Below the pieces are notes generated by a model, which was given only the letters and a program-made list of their open reading frames with translations, made no database searches and was not told the DNA's origin. A program made the position numbers and the translations under genes. A DNA stretch of 64,000 bases from Rosa chinensis (Eukaryota; Streptophyta; Magnoliopsida; Rosales; Rosaceae). The first letter of the stretch is position 1; every line of letters begins with the position of its first letter. This document shows, one piece after another, positions 3,141 to 64,000 of the stretch. The stretch spans positions 11,777,501 through 11,841,500 of the forward strand of contig NC_037090.1 of assembly GCF_002994745.2 (NCBI RefSeq), read 5' to 3'.

Positions 3141-3476
3141 TCGTTGTCATCAGGGGGAGGCACAGACATCAGGGGGAGATGTCTACATGTTCGTCTCAAA
3201 AGCGTGAAGGGTGTGTTGTGCTCTTTTTCCCTTTCGACCGAGGTTATTTTTATCCCACTGGGTTTTTGTTACTCGGCAAGGTTTTTAATGAGGCAACAAG
3301 AGAAGCACCATGTTATCCAGAAACAAACTCCACACTCAACGCGCGTTGTGCTCTTTTTCTCCTTCGACCAAGGTTGTTTTTCCCACAGGGTTTTATTACT
3401 TGGCAAGGTTTTTAACGAGGCAAATTAGAAGCGCACCTCCAAGACAATACTACTGACATGATATATCCAAGGGGAG
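3141..3476 (+). repeat. Copia copy A 3' untranslated region with a direct repeat and polypurine tract
   Basis: Two imperfect direct repeats of about 80 bp, at 3215-3296 and 3345-3423, share a TTGTGCTCTTTTTC start and an AAGGTTTTTAA-GAGGCAA end. Similar duplicated blocks are common just upstream of the 3' LTR in plant copia elements. The purine run AAGGGGAG at 3469-3476 is the likely polypurine tract. Confidence 0.75.
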
Positions 3477-3885: not shown

Positions 3886-5980
3886 TGATAGGAGCATTTT
3901 AATGTGATATTTTAATAGTTAATTCCTCACATTTTGCTTAGTTAATTCCTTAACTGAATTGATTTTTAATTCAATTTCTATTTTTAGGTACATTGGAGTA
4001 AATAAAGGTGAAATGAGCGTTAGGTCCATAATTACCTGGAAATGATGGAGAAAAATGGAAATGTACTAAAAGATCAATTTTACACATATTCCTACTCCGG
4101 CTAGGAGAAACCAAGCCAAGCAAAGAAGAAGGAGCGGACGCCTGACCAAATGAACTTCAAATGAGCTGAAACCTTCCAGATCCATTCTAGACACCCAAAG
4201 GATCATTTCTTATGAAGAATACCAGAGAAAAATATGAGTGGAAGGCCTTCAAACAATCAGCCCAATTTTCTACAGAAGCAAAACCGGAAAACTGGACCTG
4301 TAAGAGGTCCAGCAGCATTTCCGGCCCAACCACATGGCAAAAAATTCTGAAATTTTACCACAGTAATCTACACTCATGGTGGATAATTTCATATGAAGAA
4401 GTCGAAGGCATATAATGAAGTCTTGTGGGAGAAATAATTGAAGGAATAAAGGGGCAGAAAATGACTTGAAAACAGCTCAACACCACATATTCATGTTTCC
4501 CACCCACATGAAGAAAACATTTCTTTTTCCTTGGATACATTTTTTCTACTCTAAAAGATCATCATCACTTCCACATTTCTTCACCTTCATGCTTTGCTTT
4601 CATCATTACCTCATCTTTTACATATTTTACAAACCACTCTCATACTCCACTTTCATTATTTTTCTTCATCTCATCATTTCACTCTTCTTTTTCTTCCCTA
4701 TTTAAACACCTTCTCCTCTCACTCTCAATCACATTCCTTCATCCATTCCATCTTCTTTGTCTCTCCATTTCCTTTCCATTTTCCCACACAAAATTCCTTC
4801 ATCCATTCCATCTTCTTTGTCTCTCCATTTCCTTTCCATTTTCCTTTTCCATTCTCTAGTTCTTAGTTTTGCATTTTCAAGTAAAGAGAAGAAGAAGAAG
4901 CCGTGAGGACATAGCCTCCATCGTCCACCTTGAAGACTTGCTTCCAAGATTCAAGAGTCCAACGTTCAAGCTCTCCATCTCCATCTCCCCTCACGGTGTA
5001 ATTCATTCTTTTTCCTTGTAATGATTTTTTGGTTTCCTTGTTCTATTTCGTATGAACTTGTTTCTAGTTAACAATAATGTTTAGGGTAAAGTTTAAACCC
5101 AACTTCTATGTTTAAATAAAGTTTTCGAATTCCATAATTGTGATTCTAAGTTGCTTATGTGAGTTTGTTCGATTGAATTTGCTTGATAGAAAACTTTTAT
5201 ATGTTTATCTTATTTGGGTCGACACTTATAGGATTTGCATGTAATTGGTACTAGGTTTAAGAACATGAAATTGACTTTTCGTTTTGTGTAACTTGAATCA
5301 AAAGTAGTAAAGGTTCTGGACAAGAATCGAATTTAATTGAAGAGGATTGCAATTAGGTGGACTTTTCCATAACTAAGTTGTACACTTGAGTTGATAGCCT
5401 TTCTCTATGTCTAATGCGTTGAACATGTCATGATTGACTAGCTTTCTAGGGCTTGATTGCATGTTTGATAGGATTAATCTAGGTGCTTTCGCTTAGGTTA
5501 ATTAGCATTGAAAAGTAAAATATGGGAAATCATTTGCTTTCGAATGTTTCACATGATCAACTCCTCTCTCATGACTTGGAAGAACAATTATAGGGTTTGA
5601 ATCGAATTTGATTACATAGAATTGGTTTTGATCTTTGTTCCTTGCGTTCCACCCTTGTATATATGTTTTTACGTTTTCTTTATTTTATTTATTTTAATTT
5701 TAATTTTAAGAATCCTAATCCCCCCCTTATTTGTGTTTTCTTGTATATATTTATTCTTTACTACCCTTTTGTAAATAATACTTTATTATTTTAATTCTTT
5801 ATTTGTTTATACAATTGTATATATTTTTATTCTTTATTTTATTTTTGTAAATAATACTTTTCTTTATTTGTTTCACAATTACAAGTGTACCCTCAATCCC
5901 CGGAATAGAACGATCCCTACTTCCTTATATTACTAACGACATTTTCAGGGTTAAATTGTGCGCTTGCTTTGAGCGCATCA
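3886..5980 (+). mobile_element. Solo LTR of the WUS-carrying retrotransposon family
   Basis: It begins TGATAGGAGC, ends GAGCGCATCA, and is flanked by the 5-bp target duplication CTTAC at 3881-3885 and 5981-5985. The sequence matches, in reverse complement, both LTRs at 49390-51343 and 56276-58227, with clear divergence. No internal region is present, so this is a solo LTR left by LTR-LTR recombination. It is about 140 bp longer than the full-length LTRs, partly from a 60-bp tandem duplication. A TATTTAAA box lies near 4698 and the U3/R part is rich in CTT/CAT. Confidence 0.9.
4734..4853 (+). repeat. 60-bp tandem duplication inside the solo LTR
   Basis: Two copies, 4734-4793 and 4794-4853, of a unit starting TTCCTTCATCCATTCCATC. 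The minus-strand LTR copies have only one partial unit at the corresponding place. The predicted short ORFs here are low-complexity shadows. Confidence 0.85.
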
Positions 5981-5985
5981 CTTAC

Positions 5986-31167: not shown

Positions 31168-32615
31168 TAAGAAACTCATCACTATAACTTCCAAGTACAA
31201 GTATATCTTTTTTCTTATCACAATGAAACAATTTCGTTCAAATAAAAGGAAAAGTTATAAGTAAGATTGTAGTACAACACATGAGCCATAGAAGAAGCCT
31301 ACTTCTAACTTAAAGTCAAATTTGGGATGGGAGAGCACTTTGCTCTTCCCGGCTCGTTTTAATAATTTTTTTTAATTTAAATTAATTAACATGTCTGAAC
31401 AGCTTCATAAAATTAGAAATGCATATAATGTAGCTAAATATCTATAATACACCATGAGGCAACAATAAAAGTCACTAAACTTTCTACGAGTCCTAAAATA
31501 GTGGAAGCGAAACACCAACATACCAACTAATAAAGAAAATTAGTAAACTTTAGCTTCACCTCACCTCACCTCTTGACTAATGAATACACTGGAAATTATT
31601 CTATGCACCGACGGTGCAAGTGACAAAACCCTTATAAAATAATCTCAACCCTTGATATTTATTATCACCTTTATTTTTAATAAACAAAAAATATATTTAA
31701 TGCAATCTAACCATTTATTTGTGTTGGTGCAAGTGCACGGTGGTGCTCTGAATACTCCCTGATGAATACACGTGATCAAATATGTTTCAAACTCACCACT
31801 GTACTAGTGGCCGGGTTACCAAGTATTGAAGTATATATATGGATCATGGATTCACGGGTAATGCTCTTATTATAAATTAGATAAGTAACTAATAATTGTA
31901 AAATTATAAACTGAAGAAAACCTGCTTTGCTAAGAAAAATGAAGACAGCCTCGTGAAGTGAGAACTGAGAAAAGCGAGGGAGAGAGTTTGGGCGGATGAG
32001 TGTGGAGAAGTGCAAAAAATCTTCAGCCTTTCATTCATAACACTCTGTAAAACTCTGTTCCCGCGTTCTCACGTGCGTCATCACCGCCCAATGACGGAAT
32101 AAATACAAAATCATTATTAAAACCACCAACATTTTTTTCTTTCTTTTCGATCGGAATAATAAGCAAACCAAATAAAAACCCACAGAAACAAATAAATCAT
32201 CATAAAACGACAACTCCCAAAACCTGTCAGAAATATCTCTGCGCACAGCGAGTAGTGACTTCAATTATTACCGGAAATAGCCGGTCGTCGTTCTGTTCCT
32301 CGAAACCCTATGCACTCTCTCCCCTCTCTCCCCTCTCCTACCAGAAAGAAAGCAAGCGACTGTAACTAGATTTTGTTTGCGTCCAAAATCTGTGCGTGAG
32401 CGAGAGATTTCCATACATAAAAGAAGAGCTTGTGTCTTCATCCTGACATGAGAAATTCCATACCCACAATTCTCAGTCAATTCACGTATCAGAAATCTCT
32501 CTCTGCCATACTAGCCTCTCATTTCTTTCATTTCACTGTTCATTATCTCCTTTATTACCCAACTAACTAGTCTTCAATCCATTCCCTTTTCCTTTCTACT
32601 TAAGATTTCTCATCC
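31168..32615. promoter_or_regulatory. Upstream region of the BEL1-like gene
   Basis: It lies between the retroposon and the gene start. It is AT-rich to about 32000, then has CT-rich leader-like sequence (CTCTCTCCCCTCTCTCCCC near 32310-32340; TCTTTCATTTC near 32520), consistent with a 5' UTR. No TATA box can be assigned with confidence, and no coding feature is supported. Confidence 0.35.
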
Positions 32616-35609
32616 ATGGCTGAGGGTTTTGAGCCCTACCATGTCCCTCAACAAAGCAGAAGAGATAAGCTCCGGTTCTTGCCGGGTCAACCCCACCCGG
32701 TTTGTGAAGAACCCGGACCTCACCACCTTCACGGTTGTGCTGCTGCTGCTTTCTATGATCCGACCTCAATCTCACTCATCTCCTCATCAGATTTGCTCAC
32801 GTGCGCCGGCAGCTCCGTCAAAGGAGAGGGCCACGTGAATCTGATGGGTTACATGAACACTTCTACAGCTTCCTCGTCTTTAAACAATTTTCGCCATCCC
32901 TACTTGGATCCTCAACCTTCGAATTTCGCACCGAATCCCAACTCTGTCCATGATATTAACGGTCTCAACAACATGTTTCTTTATCCGAGCCAACAGAATC
33001 ATCATCATCTGAGAGACTTCCACGATGAAGCAGCTGTACTGTTCAAACCGGAACCATTGTCCTTGTCACTATCTTCACAACCCGTTGAGGTCCATAATCT
33101 GCAGAGGTACGGCTATTCGGGCATTAACGACGGTGGTCACGGGTCTAGAAGTCCGGGCCCAACTCCGCTGGGGCCGTTTACCGGCTACGCTTCGATTTTG
33201 AAGGGATCGAGGTTCTTGAAGCCAGCTCAGCAGTTGCTAGAGGAGTTCTGTGATGTGGGTAGTTCTAGTCGTGAAATTTATGCTGCTGTTAGCAGAATTA
33301 TGACAGACGAGTCCTCATCCTTTTTGGACGATCCTCCTATTGAGAGCTTGGACGATCCGGTCAGTGTTGGCGGCGGTGACGGAAGTGAGAGTCGGAGAAA
33401 GAAGTCGAGGCTGATTTCCATGCTAGACGAGGTATGTAGGGCTCTAATTTTGATTAATTTTCTAATTCAGATTAGTTTGATTATGTTCTTTTGGTTTATA
33501 TTAATTTCGTGTTTATGGGTTTTAATTGTTGTTGCATTAGATTCTTGCATTAAAGGGTTGATGCATGTGTTTGAGAAATCAGGTCTTTTTGGAAAAGGTG
33601 ATCAGAGGGAATATATGCACCGAGATTGTTGCTTAATGCTTATAAAGCATCTGACAACTCTATAGAATGAGTTCCTTAATAGTTGACAATTTCAAAATAG
33701 TGGAGGGAATCCATGGAAAAGCATGGAAAGCATAATGGTTTCCCAAATTTGAAGATGGGGTAGATTAATGAGTTCTGTACTAGTGACATGTGATAATTCC
33801 TCCATGTGCATTGTAGATGCAATTAAATTTTGAAATGTGTACGCATAGGCCATTAACCTGCTTAGTTGGACAATGTAAAAACGTGAAATTTACTATGCCT
33901 ATGAAGGTTTATAGGTTTAAGTTCACTTGCACATGTAACCAGGTTCAAAGTTTTGCATACATCTTAGATTACTGCAGATGCTATACATTTTGAATGAGAG
34001 GAAATTGACTGTATGCTCTAAAGTCTAAACTAAGAGAGAACAGATTATAATTTGGGTTTTTGGCTTGTGACCAAAGAAGAAAAATCAAAGAAGCATTCAT
34101 TTTAACTATGGGTTGAAATCTTGGTTATGGGGATTCAAAACTCGATCTTTATATCTTGAGGGCTGATGGTACTAGCTTTGAAGTTGTATATAATAAAATC
34201 TTGTGCTTATTTCCGACATCTCAAAGCAATCAAGAGGATAAAATGAAAACTTTCATTGTTATGCAATCTCCCAAAATATATATTGTCTTTGCATTGGCAG
34301 ATTTATCTAGACAATTTTTAAATGCTTCTATTTATTGAGTACTATTAATTATTTGCCCTTTTTTTTTGTCCTTTTGTCCTAGGTTTACAGGAGGTACAAG
34401 CAATACTATCACCAGATGACAGCAGTAGTGAACTCATTTGAGTATGTTGCTGGGCTTGGAAATGCAGCTCCCTATGCAAACTTGGCAATAAAGGCCATGA
34501 GTAGACACTTTACGTGTTTGAAGAATGCGATCACTGATCAGCTTCAATATTCAAGATCAAGTAGGGATGCTACAACTTTTGTAAGCCGGGACAAAGATGA
34601 AGCTATTCCAATGCTCCGTAATACTACTCGAGGCATGTATACCCAGCACAGATCTTTCCAAAGCACGGAGTTTGGCGAGCACCAACCTGTTTGGCGACCT
34701 CAAAGGGGCCTTCCTGAGCGTGCAGTTACCGTTCTTAGGTCCTGGTTGTTCGAACACTTCTTGCATCCGTAAGTATAAAATTACTTGGGACAGAACTACA
34801 TTTACTGTAGCGTGTTATCTGGTTACAATTGTCTGATTATAATGGTGTCAATCTTGTCTGTTTATACTGCAGTTACCCTACCGATACAGATAAAATAATG
34901 CTGGCTAAACAAACTGGCCTATCACGAAGCCAGGTGTGTGCCTATATTATATGATTAGTTTCTAACATGATTTAAATGTTCATATCAGTAGAATTCAATG
35001 TTGATCAATCAAGCAATTGTTTTGATAAGTGTGATTGTAAATTAGGTTTCAAATTGGTTCATTAATGCAAGAGTAAGGCTGTGGAAACCAATGGTGGAAG
35101 AGATACACATGCTAGAAACCCGGCAAGCTCATATTGCTTCACAGAAGTCAGGGGATCAAAATGCAGATAGGTCAGATGATCATGATCATTTACCATCCGC
35201 AAACTCGGTTGCATCTGAGAATCCTTCAACATCCACTTATAGAGCTCAAGACACAGCATCTAAGCGCCCAAGAAATGAATTTCCGGATGTCACAGTTGCG
35301 CGTACGCATGAAGAGTTGAACATGTCTTACAATAACTTGCCAAGCCATCTGCATCATGTTGGTCATGTTGGTGCGAGTATGGCAGGAGGAAGTACTAATG
35401 GTGTGTCACTAACGCTTGGACTTCATCACCAAAATAATGGTATTGGTATGGCGGAGCCACCCTATGCTATCATTAACACAGCTCAACGTTTCGGACTTGG
35501 CCTCGAGGGAAATAGCGATGGTTACACAATGGGTGGCTTTGATGCACAAAATCGGCATTTTGGAAGGGACGTCATGGGGGGGCAACTTTTGCATGATTTT
35601 GTGGGATGA
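32616..35609 (+). CDS. BEL1-like (BELL/TALE) homeodomain transcription factor, 4 exons
   Basis: Exons 32616-33431, 34383-34768, 34873-34933 and 35046-35609 have GT-AG introns and join in frame to 608 codons. A SKY-type box ([15 protein letters not shown]) is near residue 200. The BELL domain (about 259-325) is split by intron 1 (SRLISMLDE | [12 protein letters not shown]). The TALE homeodomain (about 376-440) has the PYP loop and [24 protein letters not shown]-like VSLTLGLHH sits near the C-terminus. Such proteins act in the nucleus as heterodimers with KNOX proteins, binding DNA and patterning meristems and organs. [13 protein letters not shown] in the BELL domain suggests the BEL1 clade, but I do not fix the paralogue. 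The reading frame continuing into intron 1 after 33431 is a shadow. Confidence 0.93.
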
Positions 35610-49051: not shown

Positions 49052-49389
49052 CGTTATCAACACGAAGCCCTAACCAGCTGAGACCCTAAAATCCCAGAAA
49101 CCTCTGCCGCCCTCCTTGAAGCCACAGACTCCAGGAACTCGGAACCGGCGGCGCCACCCCCAGAATTGGCCGGAATCCACCTGAATCGGCCTTCGAAAGT
49201 GACTGAACTGGCCCCAAGAAGAATCCTTTGGTTCCCTGCCTGGTTCACATCCTTTCAGTCTACTTTTAACAGCCATCCTCTGTCAGAAGTTGCAGCGCCA
49301 CCCCAGTTTTCGGGAACCGGAAAAATCCTTCCCGGAACCTGCCGGAAAGTACCCGAACCGCCCACCGAATACCACTGCACCGTGAACCG

Positions 49390-51343
49390 TGATGCGCTTT
49401 GAGCAAGCGCTCGATTTAACCCTGAAATGTCGTTAGTAGTATAAGTAAGTAGGGATCGTTCTATTCCGGGGATTGAGGGTACACCTGTAATTGTGTAACA
49501 AATAAAGAAAAGAATTATTTACATAAATAAAATAAAGAATAAATATATACAAGTGAACAAAAATAAGGGGGGGGGGGGTTTTAAGAATTAAAGAATTGAA
49601 AATTAAAATAAAGAAAATATAAAAACACATATACAAGAATGAAACATAAGAAACAAAGATTAAACCCAAGTTTATCATTGAATTCGAATTAACCCTACAT
49701 TGTTCTTCCAAGTCATGTGAAAGGAGTTGATCATGTGAAACATTCGAAAGCAAATGATTTCCCATATTTTACTTTTCAATGCTAATTAACCTAAGCGAAA
49801 GCACCTAGATTAATCCTATCAAACATGCAATCAAGCCCTAGAAAGCTAGTCAATCATGACATATTCAACGCATTAGACATAGAGAAAGGCTATCAACTCA
49901 AGTGTACAACTTAGTATGGAAAAGTCCACCTAATTGCAATCCTCTTTAATTAAATTCGGTCTTTGCACAAAACCTTTACTACTTTGATTCAAGTTTACAC
50001 AAAACGAAAAGTCGATTTCATGTTCTTAAACCTAGCACCAATTATATCAAAACCCTAAGTGTTTGCAACCACATAAGATTAAAATACAAAAGTTTTCTAT
50101 CATGCAAATTTAATTAAACAAACCCACATAAGCAACATAAAAATCAACATATAGAAATCACAACTTTATCTCAAAACATATAAACGGGCTTTAAACTTTG
50201 CCCTTAACATTATTTGTTAACTAGAATTCATAGTTCTACAAATCCAAACAAAGAAAACCAAAAGAAATTACAAGGAAAAAGATAGAATTACACCGTGAGG
50301 GGAGATGGAGATGGAGAGCTTGAACGTTGGAATCTTGAATCTTGGAAGCAAGTCTTCAAGGTGGACGATGGAGGCTATGTCCTCACGGCTTCTTCTTCTT
50401 CTCTTTACTTGAAAATGCAAAACTAAGAACTAGAGAATGAAGAGAAAAATGGAAAGGAAATGGAGAGACAAAGAAGATGAGATGGATGAAGGAATTGGTG
50501 ATTGAGAGTGAGAGGAGAATGTGTTTAAATAGGGAAGAAAAAGAAGAGTGAAATGATGAGATGAAGAAAAATAATGAAAGTGGAGTATGAAAGTGGTTTG
50601 TAAAATATGTAAAAGATGAGGTAATGATGAAAGCAAAGCATGAAGGTGAAGAAATGTGGAAGTGATGATGATGTTTTAGAGTAGAAAATATGTATCCAAG
50701 GAAAAAGAAATGCTTTCTTCATATGGGTGGGAAACATGAATATGTGGTGTTGAGCTGTTTTAAGGTCAGTTTCTTCCCCTTTATTCCTTCAATTATTTCT
50801 CCATCAAAACTTCAGAATGAGCCTTCGACTTCTTCATAAAAAATGTTTCACTATGAGTGTAGATCATCCTGACAAATTTTCAGAGCTTTATTCCATGTGG
50901 TTGGGCCGGAAATGCTGCTGGACCTCTTACAGGTCCAGTTTTCCAGTTTTGCTTCTGTAGAAAATTGGGCTGATTGTTTGAAGGCCTTCCACTCATATTT
51001 TTCTCTGGCACTCTTCATAAGAAATGATCCTTTGGGTGTCTAGAATGGATCTGGAAGGTTTCAGCTCATTTGAAGTTCATTTGGTCAGGCGGCCGCTCCT
51101 TCTTCCTTGCTTGGCTCTGATTCTCCTAGCCGGAGTAAGAAAATATTCAAGGTTGACTTTTTAGTGCATTTTCATTCTTCTCCATCATTTCTAGGTAATT
51201 ATGGACCTAACGCTCATTTCACCTTCATTTACTCCAATGTACCTAAAAATAGAAATTGAATTAAAATCGATTCAGTTAAGGAATTAACTAAGCAAAATGT
51301 GAGGAATTAACTATTAAAATATCACATTAAAATGCTCCTATCA
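49390..51343 (-). repeat. 3' LTR of the WUS-carrying element
   Basis: In minus sense it runs from TGATAGGAGC (51343) to GCGCATCA (49390). TATTTAAA on the minus strand lies at 50531-50524. The transcribed part contains GA/CT-rich text that produces the low-complexity ORFs at 50430-50737. It is matched nearly base for base by 56276-58227. Confidence 0.92.
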
Positions 51344-51360
51344 AATTCCCCCACACTTAG
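51344..51360 (-). other. Polypurine tract of the WUS-carrying element
   Basis: In minus sense, CTAAGTGTGGGGGAATT directly precedes the 3' LTR start TGATAGG. The G-run core is the plus-strand primer site and confirms orientation. Confidence 0.85.
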
Positions 51361-52880
51361 ATTTTGCTAGTCCCTTAGCAAAACAAAACAAAAAAAAATC
51401 CAAAACAGAACAAAGACTTGACAAAAGGCAAGTAAATGACTCTATTGCTCCTAACTGTTGTCTCAGAGACTCCAAACTCATGGCTTTCATGTTAAACACT
51501 TAATCAAAATCACAAAGATAATTCCATGGTTAATAAACCTGTGACATTCATATGACTAAGCAAGATATGGAGAACTTAAGTTATACAGTGAATGATAGCA
51601 TGTTTCGAACAAGTCCAATCCAAACTTACAGGGCATACTCTCGATTTTTCTCTCAGAAATGGCTATGCTTAAAAGCTTCACACTCAAGTATATGCAAGAG
51701 AACAAATTGTAAGGCAACAAACAGCTTGCATATTTCATCAATAAACACATTTTGTGAAGAATTTTTAAAGACCTCATGAAATGACTAAGTGCACAAATGG
51801 ACCTAAACCATAAGCTCGACTGCGTAACTGACTCCACTAACCAAAGACTGCCCATCTCAAGGATCAAGTCAGCACTTAAAACAGGTTGTAATGGGGCTAA
51901 GCTAGGGTTTTCGAAATGAAGATTAAGGATACAAAAAAAATCCTAAGGACTTAGCAGAGCATATAAGGACCACCTTATGTCATCATTTTTGTAGACCAAA
52001 TATCATTGTTTTGGGCCAAACCTTCACTCTAACCAACATGGGAATGGACAAAGGCATAATTTTCAACTTTGAGCCTTCTACAAATTTGCAAGTCCAAAAC
52101 CACACTTCAACATTTTCCCAAGAGTTTTCTTTTCAATTTTTCTTCTCTTTTGCCGCTTTTCTTTCTTTCTTTCTTTCTTTTTTTTTTTTCAAGGCAAAAT
52201 TTTTTTTTTCTTGGATTTTTCCCACCCCATACTTGTCTTTCATCGTCACCCCTACATACTATGTCATGCTCTACTAAGTCCTTAAGACAAGGGTAGAGAT
52301 ATCCTGTACTAAGCTCATGGTAGGGTAGTGAGGTGATGAAATAAAGGTTTTCAATGTAGGCTCAAGGGGGTTCATTCTAAGGAGTCCCACGACGGGCACA
52401 ATTGGGGACACATGCTTGTTTGGCTTTGGTGGTTACCCTAATGCCTTCTATCCTATCCAGGATCAGTGCATATTATGGCATACAAGTTTTGACAGTCACA
52501 ACAGTCGAGTTCTAGTATTCTCTAGTCCATTAAAATCTATGGCACATGATCATTGGATTTCCAAAGAATGATGAGGTTTTGCAAATACAGCCACGAAATT
52601 CTAGAATTATCAATAAGCACTCGAAAAGAAAGTATTTTAGCACAAAAACTCACTTGGGTCAAATGAATCAGACTTAATCCTAGCATGCTTAATGAACCAA
52701 GTTACAATCCTATCTCAAATCTTCATACAAGCATCACAATGTCGATTAACCACAGAATTCAATTAAGTCCTATTTTGATTGTGAAAACCTTCAGCCATGA
52801 ATTCGGAGACATGTTCATCCTAGACGTTAGGAGCATCCTAAGACTCAAACACACAAACAAAAACACTCTAAAACCAACAA

Positions 52881-52911
<31 letters not shown>

Positions 52912-53123
52912 TTTAATTTAATTTCAACACTTAGGTACGGGAACAGGGAGTCTCGATGTGCAATGGGACTGAAACAGCTACCCTTTTTCAAGACTATGTT
53001 TAATCCAATATACCTTAGTGTATCACAACATCAACTAAAAACACAATAAAAACACAATCCAACATCAACTATTTTTCATTTTTTTTTTATATACTAACTA
53101 CTAAAAACACAATAAAGCAATAA
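51361..53123. other. Non-coding 3' interior of the element
   Basis: 1.76 kb with no protein domain in any frame. It includes long T runs (52170-52210 and 52879-52907). ORFs at 51552-51867 and 52011-52296 are not recognisable. Confidence 0.6.
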
Positions 53124-53385
53124 CCCTTCCCCCATACTTAATTCATGCATTGTCCTCAATGTACAAACAAATATAAATCATGCAAAGCATAAATCAAGCA
53201 TAGAAGAGAAAGTTAACACAACGAAACCTAAAACAACTTAAAATTCATGAAAATAAAATAGAAGGAAGAGTTCAAGAAAGCAAATCTGCGTTTGATGTCT
53301 CCTCTACAGCTACGGTTGAAATGGGTTGCCTCCCATGCAGCGCTTAATGTTTAAAGTCTTTCAGCCTAGACTTGTACCTCCATTT
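53124..53385 (-). repeat. Direct-repeat block 1 beside the captured cassette
   Basis: It shares CCCTTCCCCCA-ACTTA, TGCATT-TCCTCAATGTA, AGAAAGCAAATCTG and GGGTTGCCTCCCA-G-AGCGCTT with block 2 at 55250-55494, in the same order and orientation, with moderate divergence. Its start is a second polypurine-like motif (TAAGTATGGGGG in minus sense). Confidence 0.8.
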
Positions 53386-53914
53386 ACTCCTTTGGAGGAG
53401 CGGTATGCGGGCGAGTGGCAGCCCTTTTGCTGGTTTCAGCCTCCGGAGGAGAGTTCTCATGTTGTGATGCAGTAGCGTCCTTGCGAGGAAACCCAGGAGG
53501 ATAACTCTGCAAGTTATTGACTTCCTGAGCAAGCTTGTTTATTGCAGTGTGACAGCGGATCAAAGAGCAGTTCATCTCAGAGATGTAATCGATCATGCAA
53601 TTGACTCTCCAATCTGTCACCATAATACCATCGCGGAGAGAGGAGCGCAAATCATCAATCAAATCCGACAAGCTTTCCAGGGTGGCCATAGGGCGAGGAG
53701 CACGAGCAGCTGGTGAGGAAGAAGACTCTCCGGGATGCAGTCTGGGAGAGCGACGAGGCAGAGGAGGGGGACTGCGGGTACGCTCACGAATAGGACGATG
53801 GTCCCATGGACGAGTAAGCCCAGCTCTAGTGGCCGCTTGACGACCTTCTTCTTCCAAAGAGAGAACACGGCGTTGATTGACGCCCCTGCGAGGGGTAACC
53901 TTGGTTCGAGCCAT
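53384..53914 (-). CDS. Element-borne ORF of unknown function with a histone H3-like N-terminus
   Basis: 176 codons from the ATG at 53914 in element sense; an in-frame ATG at 53953 would add 13 residues. The N-terminus is MARTKVTPRRG. Then comes an Arg/Pro/Ser-rich region (for example SPPPLPRRSPRLHPG) and, from about residue 78, a more hydrophobic, helix-prone part (LESLSDLIDDLRSSLRDG, INKLAQEVNNLQ) that could form a coiled coil. The C-terminal tail is Pro/Thr-rich. I recognise no gag, protease or other domain. It is head-to-head with the homeobox gene, 602 bp apart, and its stop coincides with the edge of repeat block 1. It may be a native accessory ORF of the family or captured DNA. Confidence 0.6.
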   Translation of the reverse strand: MARTKVTPRRGVNQRRVLSLEEEGRQAATRAGLTRPWDHRPIRERTRSPPPLPRRSPRLHPGESSSSPAARAPRPMATLESLSDLIDDLRSSLRDGIMVTDWRVNCMIDYISEMNCSLIRCHTAINKLAQEVNNLQSYPPGFPRKDATASQHENSPPEAETSKRAATRPHTAPPKE

Positions 53915-54059
53915 GAGGAAGTAGAAGGAATTTGAAACTGCACGCTTAGACAAACCTTAGTAAAATTTGGAGGAGACAAAAAAGGATGTATATGTAAAGC
54001 ACAAAATAGGGTAGAAATCTCAACAGGCACACGGTTTTAACAAAGCTTCTCCGGGAAGG

Positions 54060-54300
54060 AGAAGAGTTATGATAGTTCACGGCCCAAGAAACTCCCCCAC
54101 GTGTAAATATTCCTTTCTTTTCTTGGATTTATGGCATGCTTTCGGCTATAGCTTGTCTGTCACGGATCCTCGAGATTTGTTTGATTCCCCCACGCGTCCT
54201 TTCTTTTCCTTGATTCACGGCAATTAAACCTGCTTTCTGCTGTAGCTTGTCTGTCACAGCTCCTCGAGATTCGTTTGGTTCCCCCACGTGTCCTCCACGC
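54060..54300 (+). promoter_or_regulatory. Duplicated G-box region upstream of the homeobox gene
   Basis: A unit containing TAGCTTGTCTGTCAC, TCCTCGAGATT and CCCCCACG-GTCC occurs at about 54149 and 54245, about 96 bp apart, and a partial third CCCCCACGTGT lies at 54094. CACGTG G-boxes sit at 54098-54103 and 54285-54290, and CACGCG at 54191-54196. G-boxes bind bZIP/bHLH factors in plants; function here is inferred. Confidence 0.65.
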
Positions 54301-54398
54301 GCCAACAGCTTTTCCGTGTTTTCGGGTGACTTTAATCCAACGCGTAGATTTAGTCTCAGAGATCGTCGATCCAACGGTGGAGATCTGCTCACTCGTTC

Positions 54399-54406
54399 TA
54401 TAAATA
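54399..54406 (+). promoter_or_regulatory. TATA box of the element-borne homeobox gene
   Basis: TATAAATA, 118 bp upstream of the ATG at 54517, is followed by a CT-rich leader (CTTTCTCTCTC, CCTTTCCTTC) typical of plant 5' UTRs. It is on the strand opposite to the LTR promoter. Confidence 0.65.
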
Positions 54407-54516
54407 GGTGCATTCTGAGCGACTGTTCACTCCAAAAGAAAATTCTTCCGAGTTCCAGCCTTTCTCTCTCAACCCTTCAGCCTTTCCTTCGAAACTCAAA
54501 TCCTTTCTTCATCAAC

Positions 54517-55128
54517 ATGGAACCACGAACTCTGCAACTAATGGAGTTACAAACCCAGCAACAAATGGAATTACAAGCCCAGCAACCAACCGAGGAGGGA
54601 GGAAGCATCCAAGCAGCCGGGAGTAGTAACCGGTGGGCTCCCACACCGCCTCAACTAAGAATCCTCAAGGGCCTTTACTATGATAAGGGTTTTAAGTACC
54701 CAACTCCAGAGCAGATTCAAGAGATCTGCCTTCATCTGAAACAGTATGGGCAGATCGAGGACAAAAACGTCTTCTTTTGGTTCCAGAACCTCAAGGCTCG
54801 TGAGAGGCAGAAGTTGAAGGAATTTCGGAACGTTCCGGTTGGTGGATCTCTCGATCTCAATTTTGGATCCACTGGTTCTACTAGTACTGACAGATCCATT
54901 GATCTAAACTTTGGGTCACGTGTCGTCTATGGTGCTGATGGATCGATCATGGAACAACGAGGAGAATATCACCAGGAGATTGAAACCCTTCTACTATTCC
55001 CCATGCATGGTGAGGACATCTTTGGCAACATGAAGACTACTTCCGAGGGAGGTAGCGGTTATGGCGGTGGCTCTCGTATTTCCCTTGAGCTCAGCCTCAA
55101 CTCCTACAGAGATGCAGACATGGCTTAG
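54517..55128 (+). CDS. WUSCHEL-clade homeobox (WOX) protein, intronless, carried by the retrotransposon
   Basis: 203 residues. The homeodomain spans residues 39-103 ([17 protein letters not shown]...[17 protein letters not shown]) and has the extended WOX loops. A WUS box [11 protein letters not shown] is at 157-167, and an EAR-like SLELSLN at 189-195, close to the C-terminus. All three together mark the WUS clade of nuclear transcription factors, which keep stem cells in shoot meristems by repression or activation. Two DLNFGS copies (113-118, 129-134) may add repressor-like motifs. It is shorter than Arabidopsis WUS (292 residues), mainly between homeodomain and WUS box. Plant WUS genes have introns and this ORF has none, so an mRNA-derived copy is likely. 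HD helix 3 reads WFQNLKARE where most WUS proteins have WFQNHKARE. The ATG at 54517 is chosen over the ORF start at 54247, which lies in the promoter. Confidence 0.88.
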
Positions 55129-55135
55129 TATAGAA

Positions 55136-55166
<31 letters not shown>

Positions 55167-55225
55167 TTATATAGGACTCAAAAATAAAAGACAAAAAAAA
55201 AAAATATATATATATATATAGGACT
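55136..55225 (+). repeat. (ATT)n and (TA)n tracts after the homeobox gene
   Basis: An ATT trinucleotide run from about 55136 to 55166, then a duplicated ATATAGGACTCAAAA-AAAGACAAAA around an A/TA run to about 55240. These lie in the presumed 3' UTR. Confidence 0.75.
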
Positions 55226-55249
55226 CAAAATGAAAGACAAAAATATAAA

Positions 55250-55494
55250 TCCCTTCCCCCACACTTAAATATTGCATTATCCTCAATGTAATCAATTAAA
55301 AGCATGCAATAAAATAAGTAAGCATAGATAGAAGACATTTACGAAAACAAATCCTAAAATAAAAACTAAAGAGAAAAATTGAAAAATAAAAAGAAATAGG
55401 GAAAGAGAAAGCAAATCTGAATATATTCTGAATTGGGTTGCCTCCCAAGTAGCGCTTGTATTTTACGTCTTGCAGCCAGACGGTACCTACATTA
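55250..55494 (-). repeat. Direct-repeat block 2 beside the captured cassette
   Basis: Degenerate copy of block 1 (53124-53385), same orientation. It begins with CCCTTCCCCCACACTTA, which in minus sense is the same TAAGTGTGGGGG as the true polypurine tract at 51346-51360. Together the blocks bracket the two ORFs. Confidence 0.8.
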
Positions 55495-56252
55495 AATAAA
55501 GTTAGTAACTATAATTAACAAAGAAATACAAAATAAAAACAAGTATAACTATTAATTACAAACTACAAGTAAAATTAACAAGTATATTGTACATAAGACA
55601 CAAGTTAAGTACACAAGTGAGTAAAAAAACGTGAGAAGTATTTTTACAAGTTTAAAGTGTGAAACAACAAAATAATTTACACGTATAGAGTATTCACAAG
55701 TATTTCTTTTGTTATAAACATTATTGATATCGAATTAAATTCCAAGCAGTAAATCAAGTGGACGTGCGGCCCAAGTATAGTCGCCTAGACACAAACTCCC
55801 TTTCAAATCGTTTGGGCAACCTTACTGAAATGGCCAGGTGGGGGAGGACGAACACGAGAGGAAAAATCCATTTTGGCATGAGCTACTCCCACATAGTGGT
55901 TTAGGCCCATTTGCAAGCACTTCTGGATTCAAAAACCCGTCATGAACGTTGTCCCCTTCCTAGACACCATTTCACATAGGCTTTCTTACTAAGATGAGAA
56001 AGTTCATAAGTGTGAAGACAGTTCAACAAGTATTAATAAAGGCCGCCCTCAACCTTAAGGGACCTGAGCTAGGTACCAATAAGGGGTTTAGGCCAATATT
56101 AACAAAAGAGACTTCACCTATTCCTCTCAATTTACAACCTACAATTAAAATTCGTGTTCAATAATATAAATAATATTTAAACTAAGTTTTAAACAATTTA
56201 TATACAACAAATATATACAATAAATGACACAATTTAGCAAGTGATTTTTCAA
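55495..56252. other. Non-coding 5' interior of the element
   Basis: AT-rich, with no ORF or domain. In element sense this is the leader after the PBS, where gag would start in an autonomous element. Confidence 0.6.
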
Positions 56253-56270
56253 TCCCCGGCAACGGCGCCA
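56253..56270 (-). other. Primer-binding site for tRNA-Asp
   Basis: The plus strand reads TCCCCGGCAACGGCGCCA, the 3' end of plant tRNA-Asp including CCA, so the minus-sense RNA is complementary over 18 bases. It lies 5 bases from the 5' LTR end. Tat/Athila-type elements commonly use this primer. Confidence 0.9.
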
Positions 56271-56275
56271 AAAAT

Positions 56276-58227
56276 TGATGTCGCTTTTGGGAAGCGCATA
56301 ATTTAACCCTGAAATGTCGTTAGTAGTATAAGTAAGTAGGGATCGTTCTATTCCGGGGATTGAGGGTACACCTGTAATTGTGTAACAAATAAAGAAAAGA
56401 ATTATTTACATAAATAAAATAAAGAATAAATATATACAAGTGAACAAAAATAAGGGGGGGGGTTTTAAGAATTAAAGAATTGAAAATTAAAATAAAGAAA
56501 ATATAAAAACACATATACAAGAATGAAACATAAGAAACAAAGATTAAACCCAAGTTTATCATTGAATTCGAATTAACCCTACATTGTTCTTCCAAGTCAT
56601 GTGAAAGGAGTTGATCATGTGAAACATTCGAAAGCAAATGATTTCCCATATTTTACTTTTCAATGCTAATTAACCTAAGCGAAAGCACCTAGATTAATCC
56701 TATCAAACATGCAATCAAGCCCTAGAAAGCTAGTCAATCATGACATATTCAACGCATTAGACATAGAGAAAGGCTATCAACTCAAGTGTACAACTTAGTA
56801 TGGAAAAGTCCACCTAATTGCAATCCTCTTTAATTAAATTCGGTCTTTGCACAAAACCTTTACTACTTTGATTCAAGTTTACACAAAACGAAAAGTCGAT
56901 TTCATGTTCTTAAACCTAGCACCAATTATATCAAAACCCTAAGTGTTTGCAACCACATAAGATTAAAATACAAAAGTTTTCTATCATGCAAATTTAATTA
57001 AACAAACCCACATAAGCAACATAAAAATCAACATATAGAAATCACAACTTTATCTCAAAACATATAAACGGGCTTTAAACTTTGCCCTTAACATTATTTG
57101 TTAACTAGAATTCATAGTTCTACAAATCCAAACAAAGAAAACCAAAAGAAATTACAAGGAAAAAGATAGAATTACACCGTGAGGGGAGATGGAGATGGAG
57201 AGCTTGAACGTTGGAATCTTGAATCTTGGAAGCAAGTCTTCAAGGTGGACGATGGAGGCTATGTCCTCACGGCTTCTTCTTCTTCTCTTTACTTGAAAAT
57301 GCAAAACTAAGAACTAGAGAATGAAGAGAAAAATGGAAAGGAAATGGAGAGACAAAGAAGATGAGATGGATGAAGGAATTGGTGATTGAGAGTGAGAGGA
57401 GAATGTGTTTAAATAGGGAAGAAAAAGAAGAGTGAAATGATGAGATGAAGAAAAATAATGAAAGTGGAGTATGAAAGTGGTTTGTAAAATATGTAAAAGA
57501 TGAGGTAATGATGAAAGCAAAGCATGAAGGTGAAGAAATGTGGAAGTGATGATGATGTTTTAGAGTAGAAAATATGTATCCAAGGAAAAAGAAATGCTTT
57601 CTTCATATGGGTGGGAAACATGAATATGTGGTGTTGAGCTGTTTTAAGGTCAGTTTCTTCCCCTTTATTCCTTCAATTATTTCTCCATCAAAACTTCAGA
57701 ATGAGCCTTCGACTTCTTCATAAAAAATGTTTCACTATGAGTGTAGATCATCCTGACAAATTTTCAGAGCTTTATTCCATGTGGTTGGGCCGGAAATGCT
57801 GCTGGACCTCTTACAGGTCCAGTTTTCCAGTTTTGCTTCTGTAGAAAATTGGGCTGATTGTTTGAAGGCCTTCCACTCATATTTTTCTCTGGCACTCTTC
57901 ATAAGAAATGATCCTTTGGGTGTCTAGAATGGATCTGGAAGGTTTCAGCTCATTTGAAGTTCATTTGGTCAGGCGGCCGCTCCTTCTTCCTTGCTTGGCT
58001 CTGATTCTCCTAGCCGGAGTAAGAAAATATTCAAGGTTGACTTTTTAGTGCATTTTCATTCTTCTCCATCATTTCTAGGTAATTATGGACCTAACGCTCA
58101 TTTCACCTTCATTTACTCCAATGTACCTAAAAATAGAAATTGAATTAAAATCGATTCAGTTAAGGAATTAACTAAGCAAAATGTGAGGAATTAACTATTA
58201 AAATATCACATTAAAATGCTCCTATCA
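56276..58227 (-). repeat. 5' LTR of the WUS-carrying element
   Basis: In minus sense it runs from TGATAGGAGC (58227) to the LTR end at 56276, beside the PBS. A TATTTAAA box on the minus strand lies at 57415-57408. It is near-identical to 49390-51343 apart from the last ~30 bp and the length of a G run. Confidence 0.92.
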
Positions 58228-58987
58228 AACCGCTGCCTGCAAATTCCATCTGCAAGTTCTCTCTGTCCCAAGAAGCCCAGCCCAGAAGTATACAGCCCAG
58301 AAGTAGAAGAGAAGCCTCAGCTCAGCCCAGAATCAACATATCAGCCTTCGGCCCAGAAATAGAAAGGATAGGTCTGAAGCCCAGTAACGAAGCCCACTGA
58401 CACCAGCCCAAGGTCAGCGTCCACGTCAGCATCCTGTCTGCTTGCCGCATCAGCTCCAGACAGTGCCACGTCAGCACGGACCCACTGCCACGTCAGCACC
58501 AGTCAACGTTGGTCAACCCCCGGTCAACGATTTTCCGGCGACTTTTCCTGCCATCTACAGTAACTTTTCCGGTCAAGAATTTCCGACCACTTTTCAAGGT
58601 AAATCTTTTCTAAAAGTTCCCGTTTTTGAAGTTTTACTTTCAATATCTTTTCTTTTTCTCGGGGACTTCCAACATCCCTTCTTCTACCCCCCTTTCTTCT
58701 TCATAGGGGAGACCAAAAAGCCGAACTGTGGGGGTTCGTGCTCACTCCAATCTTGGAGCTTGTAGAGTCCTCCAAACTTAGAGTTTGTTGAGAAGAAAAA
58801 CGATCGACCACATACATCGTTGTTTCGATATAATCCAAAACCCCTCTTCGAATCGGATTTTCTTGGAAGCGACTACGCTCAGAAAATCCCTAATTTCTTG
58901 GAAGCGACTACGCTCAGAAATTTAATAGTTTTTCGTGGTAGCCTTTTTCGCTCCAAAACTAACCCTAATCTTGTGTTGTTTTTCGGG

Positions 58988-60441: not shown

Positions 60442-63400
60442 ATGGATGAACTTCAATATTTTGCGGATAGTGCTACTACGCACACCATTCTACGACATAG
60501 GCAATTATTCTTGGAGATGTTGCCTACATATTCCTCTGTGACTATGATGGCTGGGCCATCAAGTTTAGTTCAAGGACATGGAATGGCCCAATTCCTTTTA
60601 CCCAATGGCACCTTGATTAAAGTCACTGGAGCTCTCTACGCTCCTAAGGCAAATTTAACCTTATTAAGCTTTAAAGATATAGGAGCCAACGGATTCCATG
60701 CGGAAACGCATAGTGAGAACGGAATAGAATTCCTTTGCATTACCTCTAATGATTGCGGACGGAAGCGCATCTTAGAGAAGCTTATGTGTCAATCTAGTGG
60801 ATTTTATGTCACTACAATTCGACTAATTGAATCCAATAATATCATCAGAGAAGATCTCTTGGATTCCGACACATATTGGCTTTGGCATGACCGACTAGGA
60901 CATCCTGGTCGTGACATGATGCTCCGTATACTTAAGACTTCACACGGCATCCTTTCTTCAGAGTGAGAAGAAGCAAGAATCAAAAATTGATTCCAGGACT
61001 TAGCAAGACCGCAAAAATTGTAGCTTCTGGCGCTACTGCTGTCTTGGGCCGCGAAAAGGCCGCCCCTGTCCCTAGTGATGACGCCATAAATGGCGCCAAC
61101 CATGAGCATGACGCCATGGTTGCTCCTCCTAGTGGCCATGACGCCACACAAACCTATTTCCATGGCTCTAACGCCATAATGGGAGATGTAGTCACACACT
61201 TTGCTTCTAATAGCGCTACAGACACTTCGGCCCAACCCAAATCCTCATTGGTTGCTTCTAAGGCCCCTCGCTCATTTTGCAAAGCCTGTTCCTTCGGGAA
61301 ATTAGGACCGAGATCGTCCTATGCAAAGGATCCTAAAATACTCATTCCGTTCTTACAGAGAATCCAAGGAGATATATGTGGACCAATTCAACCATCATGC
61401 GGACCTTTTAAATACTTTATGGTATTGGTTGATGCGTCGACACGCTGGTCACATGTCGCGATGTTGTCCACTCGAAATGCTGCTTATGCTAAACTCCTCG
61501 CCCAAATTATCCATCTACGGGCTCACTACCCTGACCATCCTATTAAGTCCATTCGACTTGATAATGCTGGAGAGTTTACATCGAAATTGTTCAATAACTA
61601 TTGCATGTCACTGGGGATTGATGTAGAGCATCCAGTTCCCCATGTTCATACCCAAAATGGTCTCGCAGAAGCCGCTGTCAAACGACTACAGATGATAGCA
61701 CGGACATTGGTTATGCGCACCAATCTCCCTGTTTCTGCTTGGGGATATGCAATAGTGCATGCATCGACTCTAATTCGTTTACGACCCACTGCAACCCAAT
61801 CTTACTCTGCGTTACAGCTAGTGACTGGGTACGACTGTACGAGGCTGATATCTCTCATTTACGCATTTTTGGGTGTGCCATCTATGTGCCTATTACGCCG
61901 CCACAGCGTACTAAGATGGGTCTACAACGACGAATGGGCATATACGTTGGATATGAATCTCCAACCATTGTCCGCTACCTTGAACCCTTGACAGGCGATC
62001 TCTTTACCGCTACATTTGCGGATTGTCACTTTGATGAGACAGTCTTCCCATCGTTAGGGGGAGATAAGAACACAGATGTTCAACAGGAACGACAGGAATT
62101 GTCGTGGTCTGTCCCCACTATGTCTCATCTCGATCCCCGTATCGCACAGTCCGAACTTGAAGTGCGAAGAATAATCGAGCTCCAGAACGTAGCAGACACT
62201 CTGCTTGATGCGTTTTCTGATGTTGCCAAAGTGACGAGATCACACATTCCTGCTGCAAACGTGCCTGCAAAGATCGATGTCCCAAATACTGGACATCACG
62301 CCACTCCTGTGACATCAGGAGATGGCGCCATTGCCCAGCATGGCAATGATGTGGCATCTATGGCCACAGGTCCCGCAAGGAAGCGCGGTAGACCAATTGG
62401 TTCGAAGGATACTCGCCCTAGAAAGAAAGCGAATGAGGCACAAACAAATCCTTTGATCATCGATACTCAAAATACGTCCCATGAGAATGTTCCGGATTAC
62501 GGTTATGTCCAAGAGACATCATTGGGGGACGCCTCAATGTCAGAACCTATCCATGAGAACATAGAGATCTCTGTAAATTATACTAGCGTACATGGGACGT
62601 GGGAAAGAAACTCCATCATCATTGATGATGTATTCGTGTATTCAGTGGCGGGTGAGATTATTGAGACCGATGACATCGAACCACGCTCCGTTGATGAATA
62701 CCAACGTAGAGCTGATTGGCCAAAATGGAAAGATGCGATCCAGGCAGAACTTGATTCTCTAGCGAAAAGAAAGGTATTTGGTAAAGTTGTACCAATACCG
62801 CCCAACACCAAACCAGTTGGTCACAAATGGGTATTCGTTAGAAAGCATAATGAGAAAAACGAGATTGTAAGATACAAAGCTCGCCTTGTGGCGCAAGGCT
62901 TATCACAACGCCCTGGAATCGACTACGAGGAGACCTATTCTCCCGTAATGGACGTCATTACGTTCCGCTACCTTATCAGTTTGGTAGTTTCCGAAAACCT
63001 GAACATGCAACTTATGGATATGGTTACTGCGTATCTATATGGGGATCTAGATATGGAAATATACATGAAGATTCCCGATGGAATTCAGTTACCCAAATCA
63101 AGTGGCTCTAAACCACGGAGCGCGTTTGCGATTAGATTGAAACGCTCACTATATGGATTGAAACAATCCGGACGGATGTGGTATAACCATCTAAGTGACT
63201 ACTTGATTGGAAAGGGATATGTCAACAATGAACTATGCCCATGTGTGTTCATAAAAAGGACAAGTTCTGGATTTGCAATAGTAGCGGTTTATGTTGATGA
63301 CATGAACATAATTGGCACCCTTAAAGAGTTAAGGGAAACCGCTGAACACTTGAAATCCGAGTTTGAGATGAAAGATCTTGGGAAAACACGGTTTTGGCTC

Positions 63401-64000
63401 TGTTTAGAACTTAAGCACCGTAGAGATGGTATCCTGATTCATCAGTCGGCTTATACCCAAAAGATGCTTAGGCGTTTCAACACTGACATGATTAAGCCTT
63501 CAAGCACCCCAATGGTCGTCCGTAGTCTTGATCCAAAGAAGGATCCATTCCGTCCAAAAGATGACGACGAAGAAGTGCTAGAGGCAGAAGTGCCATATCT
63601 AAGTGCAATAGGCGCATTATTGTACTTAGCACAATGCACAAGACCAGATATCTCATTCTCTGTGAACTTGCTAGCTAGATATAGCTCTGCGCCAACACGA
63701 CGCCATTGGACTGGTGTTAAAGATATCTTTCGATACCTAAGTGGTACGATCGATATGAGCTTGTTCTATGCCTACAGAGAGAAGATGGATTTGGACCCAT
63801 CTAGTGTCAGGGACGCCACATATGGTGAACCGCGTTCCCTCTCCCCACCCCAAAACGATGTAAGTGTTTTGGAAGGTTTTGCTGATGCTGGGTACCTCTC
63901 TGACCCACACAAAGGTCACTCCCAAACTGGTTATGTTTTCACCATGGGAAAGACCGCGATATCTTAGAGGTCTACAAAGCAGACCTTAGTCGCTACCTCT
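60442..64000 (+). pseudogene. Copia copy B Pol, with frameshifts and a stop (3' end outside window)
   Basis: The domains are those of copy A plus the N-terminal part that copy A lacks here: a protease-like segment (QYFADSATTHTIL; copia proteases have a similar DSGA/DSGC site, here DSATT) and the GAG-pre-integrase region LWHDRLGHPGRDMM. Breaks are a TGA at 60964-60966 with a frame change to the integrase part, an 8-bp insertion near 61832-61840 with a further frame change, and TAG at 63965-63967 within RNase H, where copy A has TGG. A hydrophilic linker with repeated TGACGCCA motifs lies at 61079-61150. It cannot make a full polyprotein. Confidence 0.9.

What the first reader, a model, noticed from the sequence alone, without database searches (positions are those of the whole stretch)
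49390..58227. LTR retrotransposon carrying an intact WUSCHEL-clade homeobox gene
Seen: a complete element with target duplication AACCG, PBS, polypurine tract and near-identical LTRs. It has no gag-pol but carries a 203-codon ORF with a WOX homeodomain, WUS box and EAR-like motif, uninterrupted. Established: WUS controls stem-cell fate, and ectopic WUS can alter meristems or induce embryos. Inference: the element has captured a master regulator and can multiply it, as a retroviral transduction would. The low LTR divergence suggests recent mobility. I have no knowledge of this exact element having been described.
Basis: partly seen in the sequence, partly recalled or inferred. Interest (0 to 1): 0.93.

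Follow-up and report, generated by a model that had tools for sequence, protein, structure and literature searches.

The report
Rose jumping gene carrying WUSCHEL gene
A family of recently active rose retrotransposons has swallowed a copy of WUSCHEL, the master switch of plant stem cells, and has multiplied it, mostly uninterrupted, probably to well over a hundred copies, which probably explains a puzzling gene-family explosion reported in roses.

Summary
Window 49390-58227 is a complete non-autonomous LTR retrotransposon in Rosa chinensis (LTRs 99.5% alike, TSD AACCG, PBS, PPT). It carries an intact 203-codon intronless WUS gene, antisense to the element, and a 176-aa sense ORF. All 20 other copies fetched have an LTR pair around the gene. 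The ORF is intact in 35 of 40 copies read; 109 of 113 near-full-length matches listed have no in-frame stop. LTR pairs are >=99.4% alike in 20 of 21 copies. Native WUS lies elsewhere, with introns. Seven divergent copies match its spliced CDS and leave it at the same base (within 1 nt); one lies antisense to Ty3/gypsy gag and protease. So a spliced WUS mRNA was captured, perhaps once, in the Rosa lineage. Purifying selection is detectable, strongest in the homeodomain. A 2024 paper counts 381 rose 'WOX genes', 364 rose-only, and suggests whole-genome duplication; this transposon probably made most of them. Function is inferred: an element-encoded regulator in the antisense slot known from Retand and Grande. 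Effects on meristems are untested; 359 of the 364 are reported nearly silent during rooting.

The parts
56276..58227 (-). 5' LTR
   Evidence: 99.5% identical to 49390-51343
49390..51343 (-). 3' LTR
   Evidence: ends TG..CA
49385..49389 (.). target site duplication AACCG, left
58228..58232 (.). target site duplication AACCG, right
56250..56270 (-). primer binding site, tRNA-Asp type (name recalled)
   Evidence: identical 17-mer in 21 of 21 copies
51344..51358 (-). polypurine tract next to 3' LTR
   Evidence: pattern in 19 of 21 copies
54517..55128 (+). captured WUS-derived ORF, 203 codons, intronless, antisense to the element
54625..54813 (+). WOX homeodomain (residues 37-99)
   Evidence: three helices, pLDDT 79-92 in blocks of ten over residues 41-100
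54985..55008 (+). WUS box, TLLLFPMH in this copy (TLPLFPMH in other copies)
55084..55098 (+). EAR motif LELSL, invariant in 22 aligned proteins
54399..54406 (+). TATAAATA 118 bp upstream of the WUS ATG (candidate antisense promoter); two CACGTG boxes further upstream
   Evidence: TATAAATA at -118/-122 in 13 of 21 copies, CACGTG at -232/-236 in 19 of 21; no transcription data
53384..53914 (-). second ORF, 176 aa, in sense with the element, no Pfam match
   Evidence: open in 21 of 21 copies; 98% identical R. chinensis protein; no Pfam match
53141..56275 (-). conserved core, segments 96.6-98.7% identical on average to 20 other copies (except 55129-55250, 86%), found with different LTR types

Best explanation
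This is a young member of a Rosa family of non-autonomous Ty3/gypsy-type LTR retrotransposons that captured a spliced WUSCHEL mRNA, most simply once, in antisense orientation. One more native-like copy seen (L057) still has gag and protease beside the gene; the present form has neither and keeps two ORFs, a sense 176-aa ORF and the antisense WUS derivative. It moves with enzymes supplied by relatives (inferred), exchanges its LTRs with other backbones (inferred from sequence), and has spread very recently, probably to well over a hundred copies. The WUS derivative is held by purifying selection, above all in its homeodomain, and has kept its repression motifs, so it most likely works for the element as an accessory transcriptional regulator (inferred), in the same antisense slot that Retand and Grande elements use for their DNA-binding or nuclear proteins.
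For: Anatomy. Family: 20 of 20 fetched copies have an LTR pair around the ORF (19 of 20 match the window's LTR on both sides, L026 only weakly on one). ORF intact in 35 of 40; of 150 matches listed (187 found), 113 cover at least 193 of 203 residues and 109 of these have no in-frame stop. Capture: native WUS with three coding exons at C2:11.71 Mb; intronless copies L048-L054 match the spliced CDS colinearly across exon junctions (L048 over nt 1-877 with no net gap; the others with indels inside exons, L049 from nt 136 on, L054 in two pieces), and 7 of 7 leave the native sequence at nt 3171-3173 of the locus, running into the same foreign sequence. L057: the gene is antisense to ORFs with Retrotrans_gag and aspartyl protease domains. 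Tree: a 100/95 branch parts native WUS of four species from the 59 other rows; with Vigna as outgroup, R. chinensis native WUS is their closest relative. Selection: 38 nonsynonymous and 25 synonymous variants in the 35 intact ORFs, 0.46-0.62 of the neutral ratio, p 0.003-0.046; homeodomain 4 and 6, 0.18-0.26, p 0.008-0.035, for transition weights 1-4; pairwise pN/pS 0.43, homeodomain 0.19, on 18 ORFs. LTR exchange: core and LTR similarity uncorrelated over 120 pairs of 16 of the 21 copies, rho 0.14, p 0.13.
Against: No expression, protein or binding data were available here; 359 of 364 rose-only WOX genes are reported almost unexpressed during rooting (PMC11405225). Youth alone explains much of the intactness. 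The selection test treats variants as independent although copies share ancestry and look recombined, uses copies picked for similarity to the window, and is weak outside the homeodomain (p 0.04-0.19). The ORF is only slightly better conserved than non-coding core (98.7% against 97.5%). WUS motifs as recalled are not enriched in the LTRs. No autonomous partner was found: the LTR search did not complete. The C-terminal tail of the window type differs from that of L048-L054, so a second capture is not excluded. RT and integrase of the lineage were not seen, so lineage placement is provisional. LTRs were checked for 21 copies only, not for the other matches.
Confidence: 0.8

Rival explanations
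1. Passive cargo: the WUS ORF is captured host sequence with no use to the element; it looks intact only because the copies are young.
For: Longest LTR matches date 20 of 21 insertions to under about 0.2 My at a recalled rate of 1.3e-8; ORF identity (98.7%) is only slightly above non-coding core (97.5%); near absence of expression in published rooting data.
Against: Homeodomain variants 4 nonsynonymous to 6 synonymous; EAR invariant and WUS box nearly so in 22 proteins, some only about half identical to this one (native WUS included); long open frames in many more diverged copies; L048-L054 differ from native WUS most at third codon positions, though part of that is constraint on the native gene.
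Confidence: 0.3
2. The rose WOX expansion comes from whole-genome or segmental duplication of host genes (hypothesis of PMC11405225).
For: Proposed in print, by analogy.
Against: The 21 copies examined are intronless and inside LTR pairs, 15 of 17 with their own TSD; the same paper found 0 collinear genes; no recent WGD in Rosa according to PMC8213826 and PMC6499834.
Confidence: 0.02
3. Misassembly or a native WUS locus flanked by chance LTRs.
For: None found.
Against: Native WUS with introns is elsewhere; 20 further copies have the same layout.
Confidence: 0.01
4. The element-borne WUS derivative changes host meristems or germline-founding stem cells and so favours its own transmission, a plant counterpart of a viral oncogene.
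For: Source gene is a stem-cell regulator (established); homeodomain, WUS box and EAR conserved; selection on the homeodomain.
Against: No expression data; homeodomain has changed in its last helix (WFQNHK to WFQNLK); 359 of 364 rose-only WOX genes almost silent during rooting.
Confidence: 0.15

Closest known systems
RcWOX clades I-V of Rosa chinensis (PMC11405225; sections 3.2, 4.1, 4.2 read whole, other passages)
   Same: Very probably the same genes: the paper prints motifs [43 protein letters not shown] and [20 protein letters not shown], which fit this ORF family; 226 of 381 on chromosome 2.
   Different: The paper treats them as host genes, suggests WGD, and its main text holds no word beginning transpos, retro or LTR. 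I did not match its gene list to my coordinates.
Antisense additional ORFs of Retand, Grande and RIRE2 elements (PMC7264820, PMC11963269; passages)
   Same: Antisense ORF in a Ty3/gypsy-type element; Retand's TRP28 domain is predicted to bind DNA and Grande's gene23 product is nuclear.
   Different: For those ORFs the review reports no clear similarity to other proteins; here the origin is a named host gene. No TRP28 domain here.
Orchid Ty3/gypsy elements with an m6A demethylase domain (PMC9289625; title and passages)
   Same: Captured domain kept in an LTR retrotransposon family through several subfamilies.
   Different: RNA demethylase, called functional in the title; here a homeodomain transcription factor in antisense.
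Maize Bs1 and other LTR elements with transduced genes (as told in PMC7264820, passages)
   Same: LTR element carrying host gene sequence.
   Different: Usually in sense with gag-pol; [quoted passage not shown]

Membership tests
LTR retrotransposon | two LTRs, TG..CA ends, TSD, PBS, PPT | tested here: met
Ty3/gypsy, OTA (Ogre/Tat/Athila) lineage | tRNA-Asp-type PBS next to the 5' LTR (link to OTA recalled) | tested here: met
   21 of 21 copies; not diagnostic alone
Ty3/gypsy, OTA (Ogre/Tat/Athila) lineage | gag and aspartyl protease of the Retrotrans_gag type | tested here: inconclusive
   present in more native-like relative L057; no such ORF in the window element
Ty3/gypsy, OTA (Ogre/Tat/Athila) lineage | RT/RH/INT phylogeny placing it in OTA | not tested
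Retand | antisense TRP28 ORF between pol and 3' LTR | tested here: not met
   no TRP28 in either ORF
WUS clade of WOX proteins | WOX homeodomain | tested here: met
WUS clade of WOX proteins | WUS box TLxLFPxx and EAR motif (recalled) | tested here: met
   WUS box altered in the window copy
WUS clade of WOX proteins | descent from WUS itself | tested here: met
Retroviral-type transduction | captured sequence in sense with the element's genes | tested here: not met
   WUS is antisense to the window element and to gag-pro in L057
Active, mobile element | observed new insertions or polymorphism | not testable with these tools
   only this one Rosa genome was at hand; LTR identity is indirect

The most novel reading that the evidence does not exclude
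A retrotransposon family in roses carries an altered stem-cell master regulator as a selected accessory gene that acts on the shoot meristem, from which the plant germline arises, to raise the element's own inheritance; its recent burst happened in only one wild parent of the hybrid 'Old Blush', and hybrid rose genomes carry it as ancestry blocks.
Probability: 0.15. Interest if true: 0.96.

Novelty: new variant of a known kind. Interest (0 to 1): 0.83.

Why it matters
It gives an antisense accessory ORF of a plant LTR retrotransposon a traceable host origin; the 2020 review PMC7264820 states that the origin of most such ORFs remains unknown (passage). It offers a transposon explanation for the reported 381 WOX genes of rose, whose authors ask for further evidence, and warns that most of these are probably not host genes. 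Because the captured gene is a stem-cell regulator, it makes the question of whether a transposon can use host developmental control for its own spread directly testable. I found no description of it in 8 searches of the open-licence PMC library, judged by titles, abstracts and the passages named in this report; subscription papers are not held.

Tried and rejected
Chance or misassembly: rejected. Whole-genome duplication: rejected for the copies examined. WUS protein acting on its own LTRs through known sites: TTAATGG 0 found against 8.5 expected, TTAATSS 27 against 25.1, TGAATGA(A) 7 against 11.8, CACGTG 0 against 1.1, over the LTRs of 16 of the 21 copies (motifs recalled; 40 shuffles each); no support, though the altered helix may read other sites. 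The sense ORF is not a recognisable piece of L057, L058 or the other native-like copies (no match better than E 1.6). A stretch of 338 bp in the native 5' leader that L048 and L049 lack looks at first like a 5'UTR intron, but it is flanked by a repeat (CCTCTCTGTCAACTT), so it may be a later insertion; left open. Autonomous partner: the LTR search never got an answer nor did one with 51345-53140. Viral contigs: no relative. A paper on the WUS homeodomain crystal: search empty.
Full report
WHERE. The window is G000:C3:11777501-11841500 of a 515-Mb assembly in 53 contigs. The best protein matches are Rosa chinensis proteins, some with RchiOBHm locus names, so this is R. chinensis, very probably an 'Old Blush' haploid assembly (inference).

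THE ELEMENT. Self-comparison gives one LTR pair, 99.5% identical over 1957 aligned columns. TG..CA ends, TSD AACCG on both sides, a PBS of the tRNA-Asp type and a PPT place the element on the minus strand. The internal 4.9 kb holds two ORFs of 150 codons or more. The WUS ORF (54517-55128) is on the plus strand, thus antisense; the 176-aa ORF (53387-53914) is in sense and has no Pfam match. The window also holds a solo LTR of the same family at 3886-5981 with TSD CTTAC.

THE PROTEIN. phmmer finds solved WUSCHEL and STENOFOLIA homeodomains (81.9 and 73.7 bits). The AlphaFold model is confident only in the homeodomain (blocks of pLDDT 79-92 over residues 41-100, helices 44-56, 64-77, 82-104); mean pLDDT is 58, pTM 0.34, and the rest looks disordered. 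In an alignment of 22 proteins SLELSL is invariant and the WUS box nearly so. Much of the native middle part is missing and short [12 protein letters not shown] units take its place in varying number; WFQNHK of native WUS is WFQNLK here. The window copy itself has a private P-to-L change in the WUS box.

THE FAMILY. A DNA search scored 40 of 654 candidates, and all 40 match at 96% or more. I fetched 10-kb stretches for 20 of the 39 outside the window. All 20 have an LTR pair around the ORF; with the window, the longest LTR match is at least 99.4% identical in 20 of 21 (in L014 it was seen over 524 bp only), has no mismatch in 6 of 21, and is 88% in L028. At a recalled rate of 1.3e-8 the 20 are younger than about 0.2 My. 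TSDs are found in 15 of 17 copies with both ends in view; in L010 and L017 there is none, and the repeat runs a few bases past the LTR into PBS-side sequence, unexplained. The PBS 17-mer is identical in 21 of 21, the PPT pattern present in 19 of 21. The WUS ORF is intact in 18 of these 21 and in 17 of 19 further ORF-only pieces, 35 of 40 in all; L018, L019, L028, L035 and L040 are broken. The sense ORF is open in 21 of 21. A protein search scored 150 of 719 candidates and found 187 matches, 150 of them listed. Of these, window included, 113 cover at least 193 of 203 residues and 109 of the 113 have no in-frame stop; of 37 partial rows 34 have none. Frameshifts are not counted there, LTRs were not checked for these rows beyond the 21 copies, and copy numbers are lower bounds.

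LTR SWAPPING. Segments of the core 53141-56275 are on average 96.6-98.7% identical between the window and 20 copies, except 55129-55250 (86%), while the LTRs align over only about three quarters of their length at 90-91%. Over 120 pairs of 16 copies, core and LTR similarity are uncorrelated (rho 0.14, p 0.13; L014, L018, L019, L026 and L028 were left out; pairs are not independent). Exchange by template switching is the simplest reading (inference). Copies were chosen by ORF similarity, which favours the core.

ORIGIN. Searching with Fragaria vesca WUS found 247 matches (132 of 822 candidates scored). One locus, C2:11711808-11713110, is the native gene: three coding exons, 299 codons. Copies L048-L054 match the spliced coding sequence colinearly: L048 over nt 1-877 with no net gap, L049-L053 with indels inside exons (L049 from nt 136 on), L054 in two pieces; 6 of these 7 have in-frame stops. 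In 7 of 7 the similarity to the native locus ends at nt 3171-3173, about 20 nt before the stop codon, and continues into the same foreign sequence. In the window and L058 it ends at 3168 and 3170, with a different tail. So one capture is simplest and two are possible. Around L051, the 9-kb locus L057 has the gene antisense to ORFs with Retrotrans_gag and aspartyl protease domains; no LTR pair was within the 9 kb. Antisense capture is unusual, since transduced genes are usually in sense (PMC7264820, passage). A tree of 63 proteins used 61 of the 67 matches, native WUS and the window protein. A 100/95 branch parts native WUS of Rosa, Fragaria, Argentina and Vigna from the other 59; rooted with Vigna, the R. 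chinensis native WUS is nearest to them. The genomic place of most of these 59 was not checked. R. rugosa proteins fall in several of the branches, so subfamilies probably predate that split, put at about 5.26 My in PMC8213826. Whether the R. rugosa genes lie in LTRs was not tested. The three proteins named from other genera (Argentina, Fragaria, Vigna) are named WUSCHEL; that search is limited to relatives sharing short exact words.

SELECTION. In the 35 intact ORFs (5 broken left out), 38 nonsynonymous and 25 synonymous variants give 0.46-0.62 of the neutral ratio (p 0.003-0.046 for transition weights 1 to 4). The homeodomain has 4 and 6 (0.18-0.26, p 0.008-0.035); the rest is weaker (0.57-0.75, p 0.04-0.19). 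The sense ORF gives 0.52-0.65 (p 0.005-0.045) in 21 copies. Pairwise pN/pS on 18 ORFs was 0.43, homeodomain 0.19. Variants are not independent because copies share ancestry and look recombined, so these p values are optimistic.

CHROMOSOME BLOCKS. All 150 listed matches lie on C2 (94; 33.96-88.15 Mb), C3 (28; 0.84-16.30), C7 (15; 2.81-19.13), C1 (12; 57.04-64.05) and contig C43 (1), none on C4, C5 or C6; 37 further matches were not listed. These blocks span 93 of 504 Mb. By contrast 55 rows of more divergent copies picked (matching only residues about 3-113 of F. vesca WUS, 64-79% identical) are spread evenly over the chromosomes (p 0.86). The published count has the same skew: 226 of 381 on chromosome 2. 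'Old Blush' is described as a hybrid with a sign of Synstylae introgression (PMC6499834, PMC9527601; passages). I suggest that the burst happened in one parental lineage; this is a hypothesis, and insertion preference is a rival.

LITERATURE. PMC11405225 (sections 3.2, 4.1, 4.2 read) reports 381 rose WOX genes, 364 in rose-only clades, 170 WOX genes in R. multiflora and 105 in R. rugosa, suggests WGD, finds 0 collinear genes, and sees almost no expression for 359 of 364 during rooting; its main text has no word beginning transpos, retro or LTR. PMC8213826 (first part of section 7) lists a WUS/WUSCHEL orthogroup with 46 members in R. rugosa and 14 in R. chinensis, and finds no recent WGD. A Rosaceae transposon survey, PMC11197308, has no word beginning WUSCHEL, WUS, WOX or homeo. 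The three papers on extra ORFs searched for homeo, WUSCHEL and WOX have none either.

FUNCTION. Shown: anatomy, copies, intact frames, selection signal. Inferred: mobilisation by a helper, an antisense promoter (TATAAATA 118-122 bp before the ATG in 13 of 21 copies, CACGTG at -232/-236 in 19 of 21), and a role as regulator. Not supported: enrichment of recalled WUS sites in the LTRs.

Noticed in passing
window 3886-5981: Solo LTR of the same family in opposite orientation, 86-93% identical, with TSD CTTAC.
   Followed up: partly
G000:C7:15790636-15805238: Three WUS matches at 7,008 and 7,010 bp spacing, as expected of a tandem LTR-internal-LTR array made by unequal recombination.
   Followed up: no
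G000 C1, C2, C3, C7: The 150 listed best matches to the window protein fall in four chromosome blocks plus contig C43, none on C4-C6; possible ancestry blocks of the hybrid cultivar.
   Followed up: partly
window 53387-53914 (-): A 176-aa sense ORF of unknown kind, open in 21 of 21 copies, also under apparent purifying selection.
   Followed up: partly
G000:C2:11711000-11714999 (L056): A 338-bp stretch in the native WUS leader, flanked by a repeat, is absent from captured copies L048 and L049; intron or later insertion.
   Followed up: no
L010 and L017, left LTR ends: No TSD; the repeat runs a few bases past the LTR into PBS-side sequence, as if the insertion kept primer-site bases.
   Followed up: no
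window 32604-35606: A POX-domain gene (PF07526) followed by an ORF that starts like a homeodomain recognition helix; looks like a host BEL1-like homeobox gene (name recalled).
   Followed up: no
window 8-2771 and 61229-64000: Two 94% identical stretches at the window ends; the first lies in an ORF with copia-type integrase and reverse transcriptase domains.
   Followed up: no
G000:C2:82.19-82.60 Mb, C5:85.35-85.73 Mb: Local clusters of more divergent WUS-like sequences.
   Followed up: no
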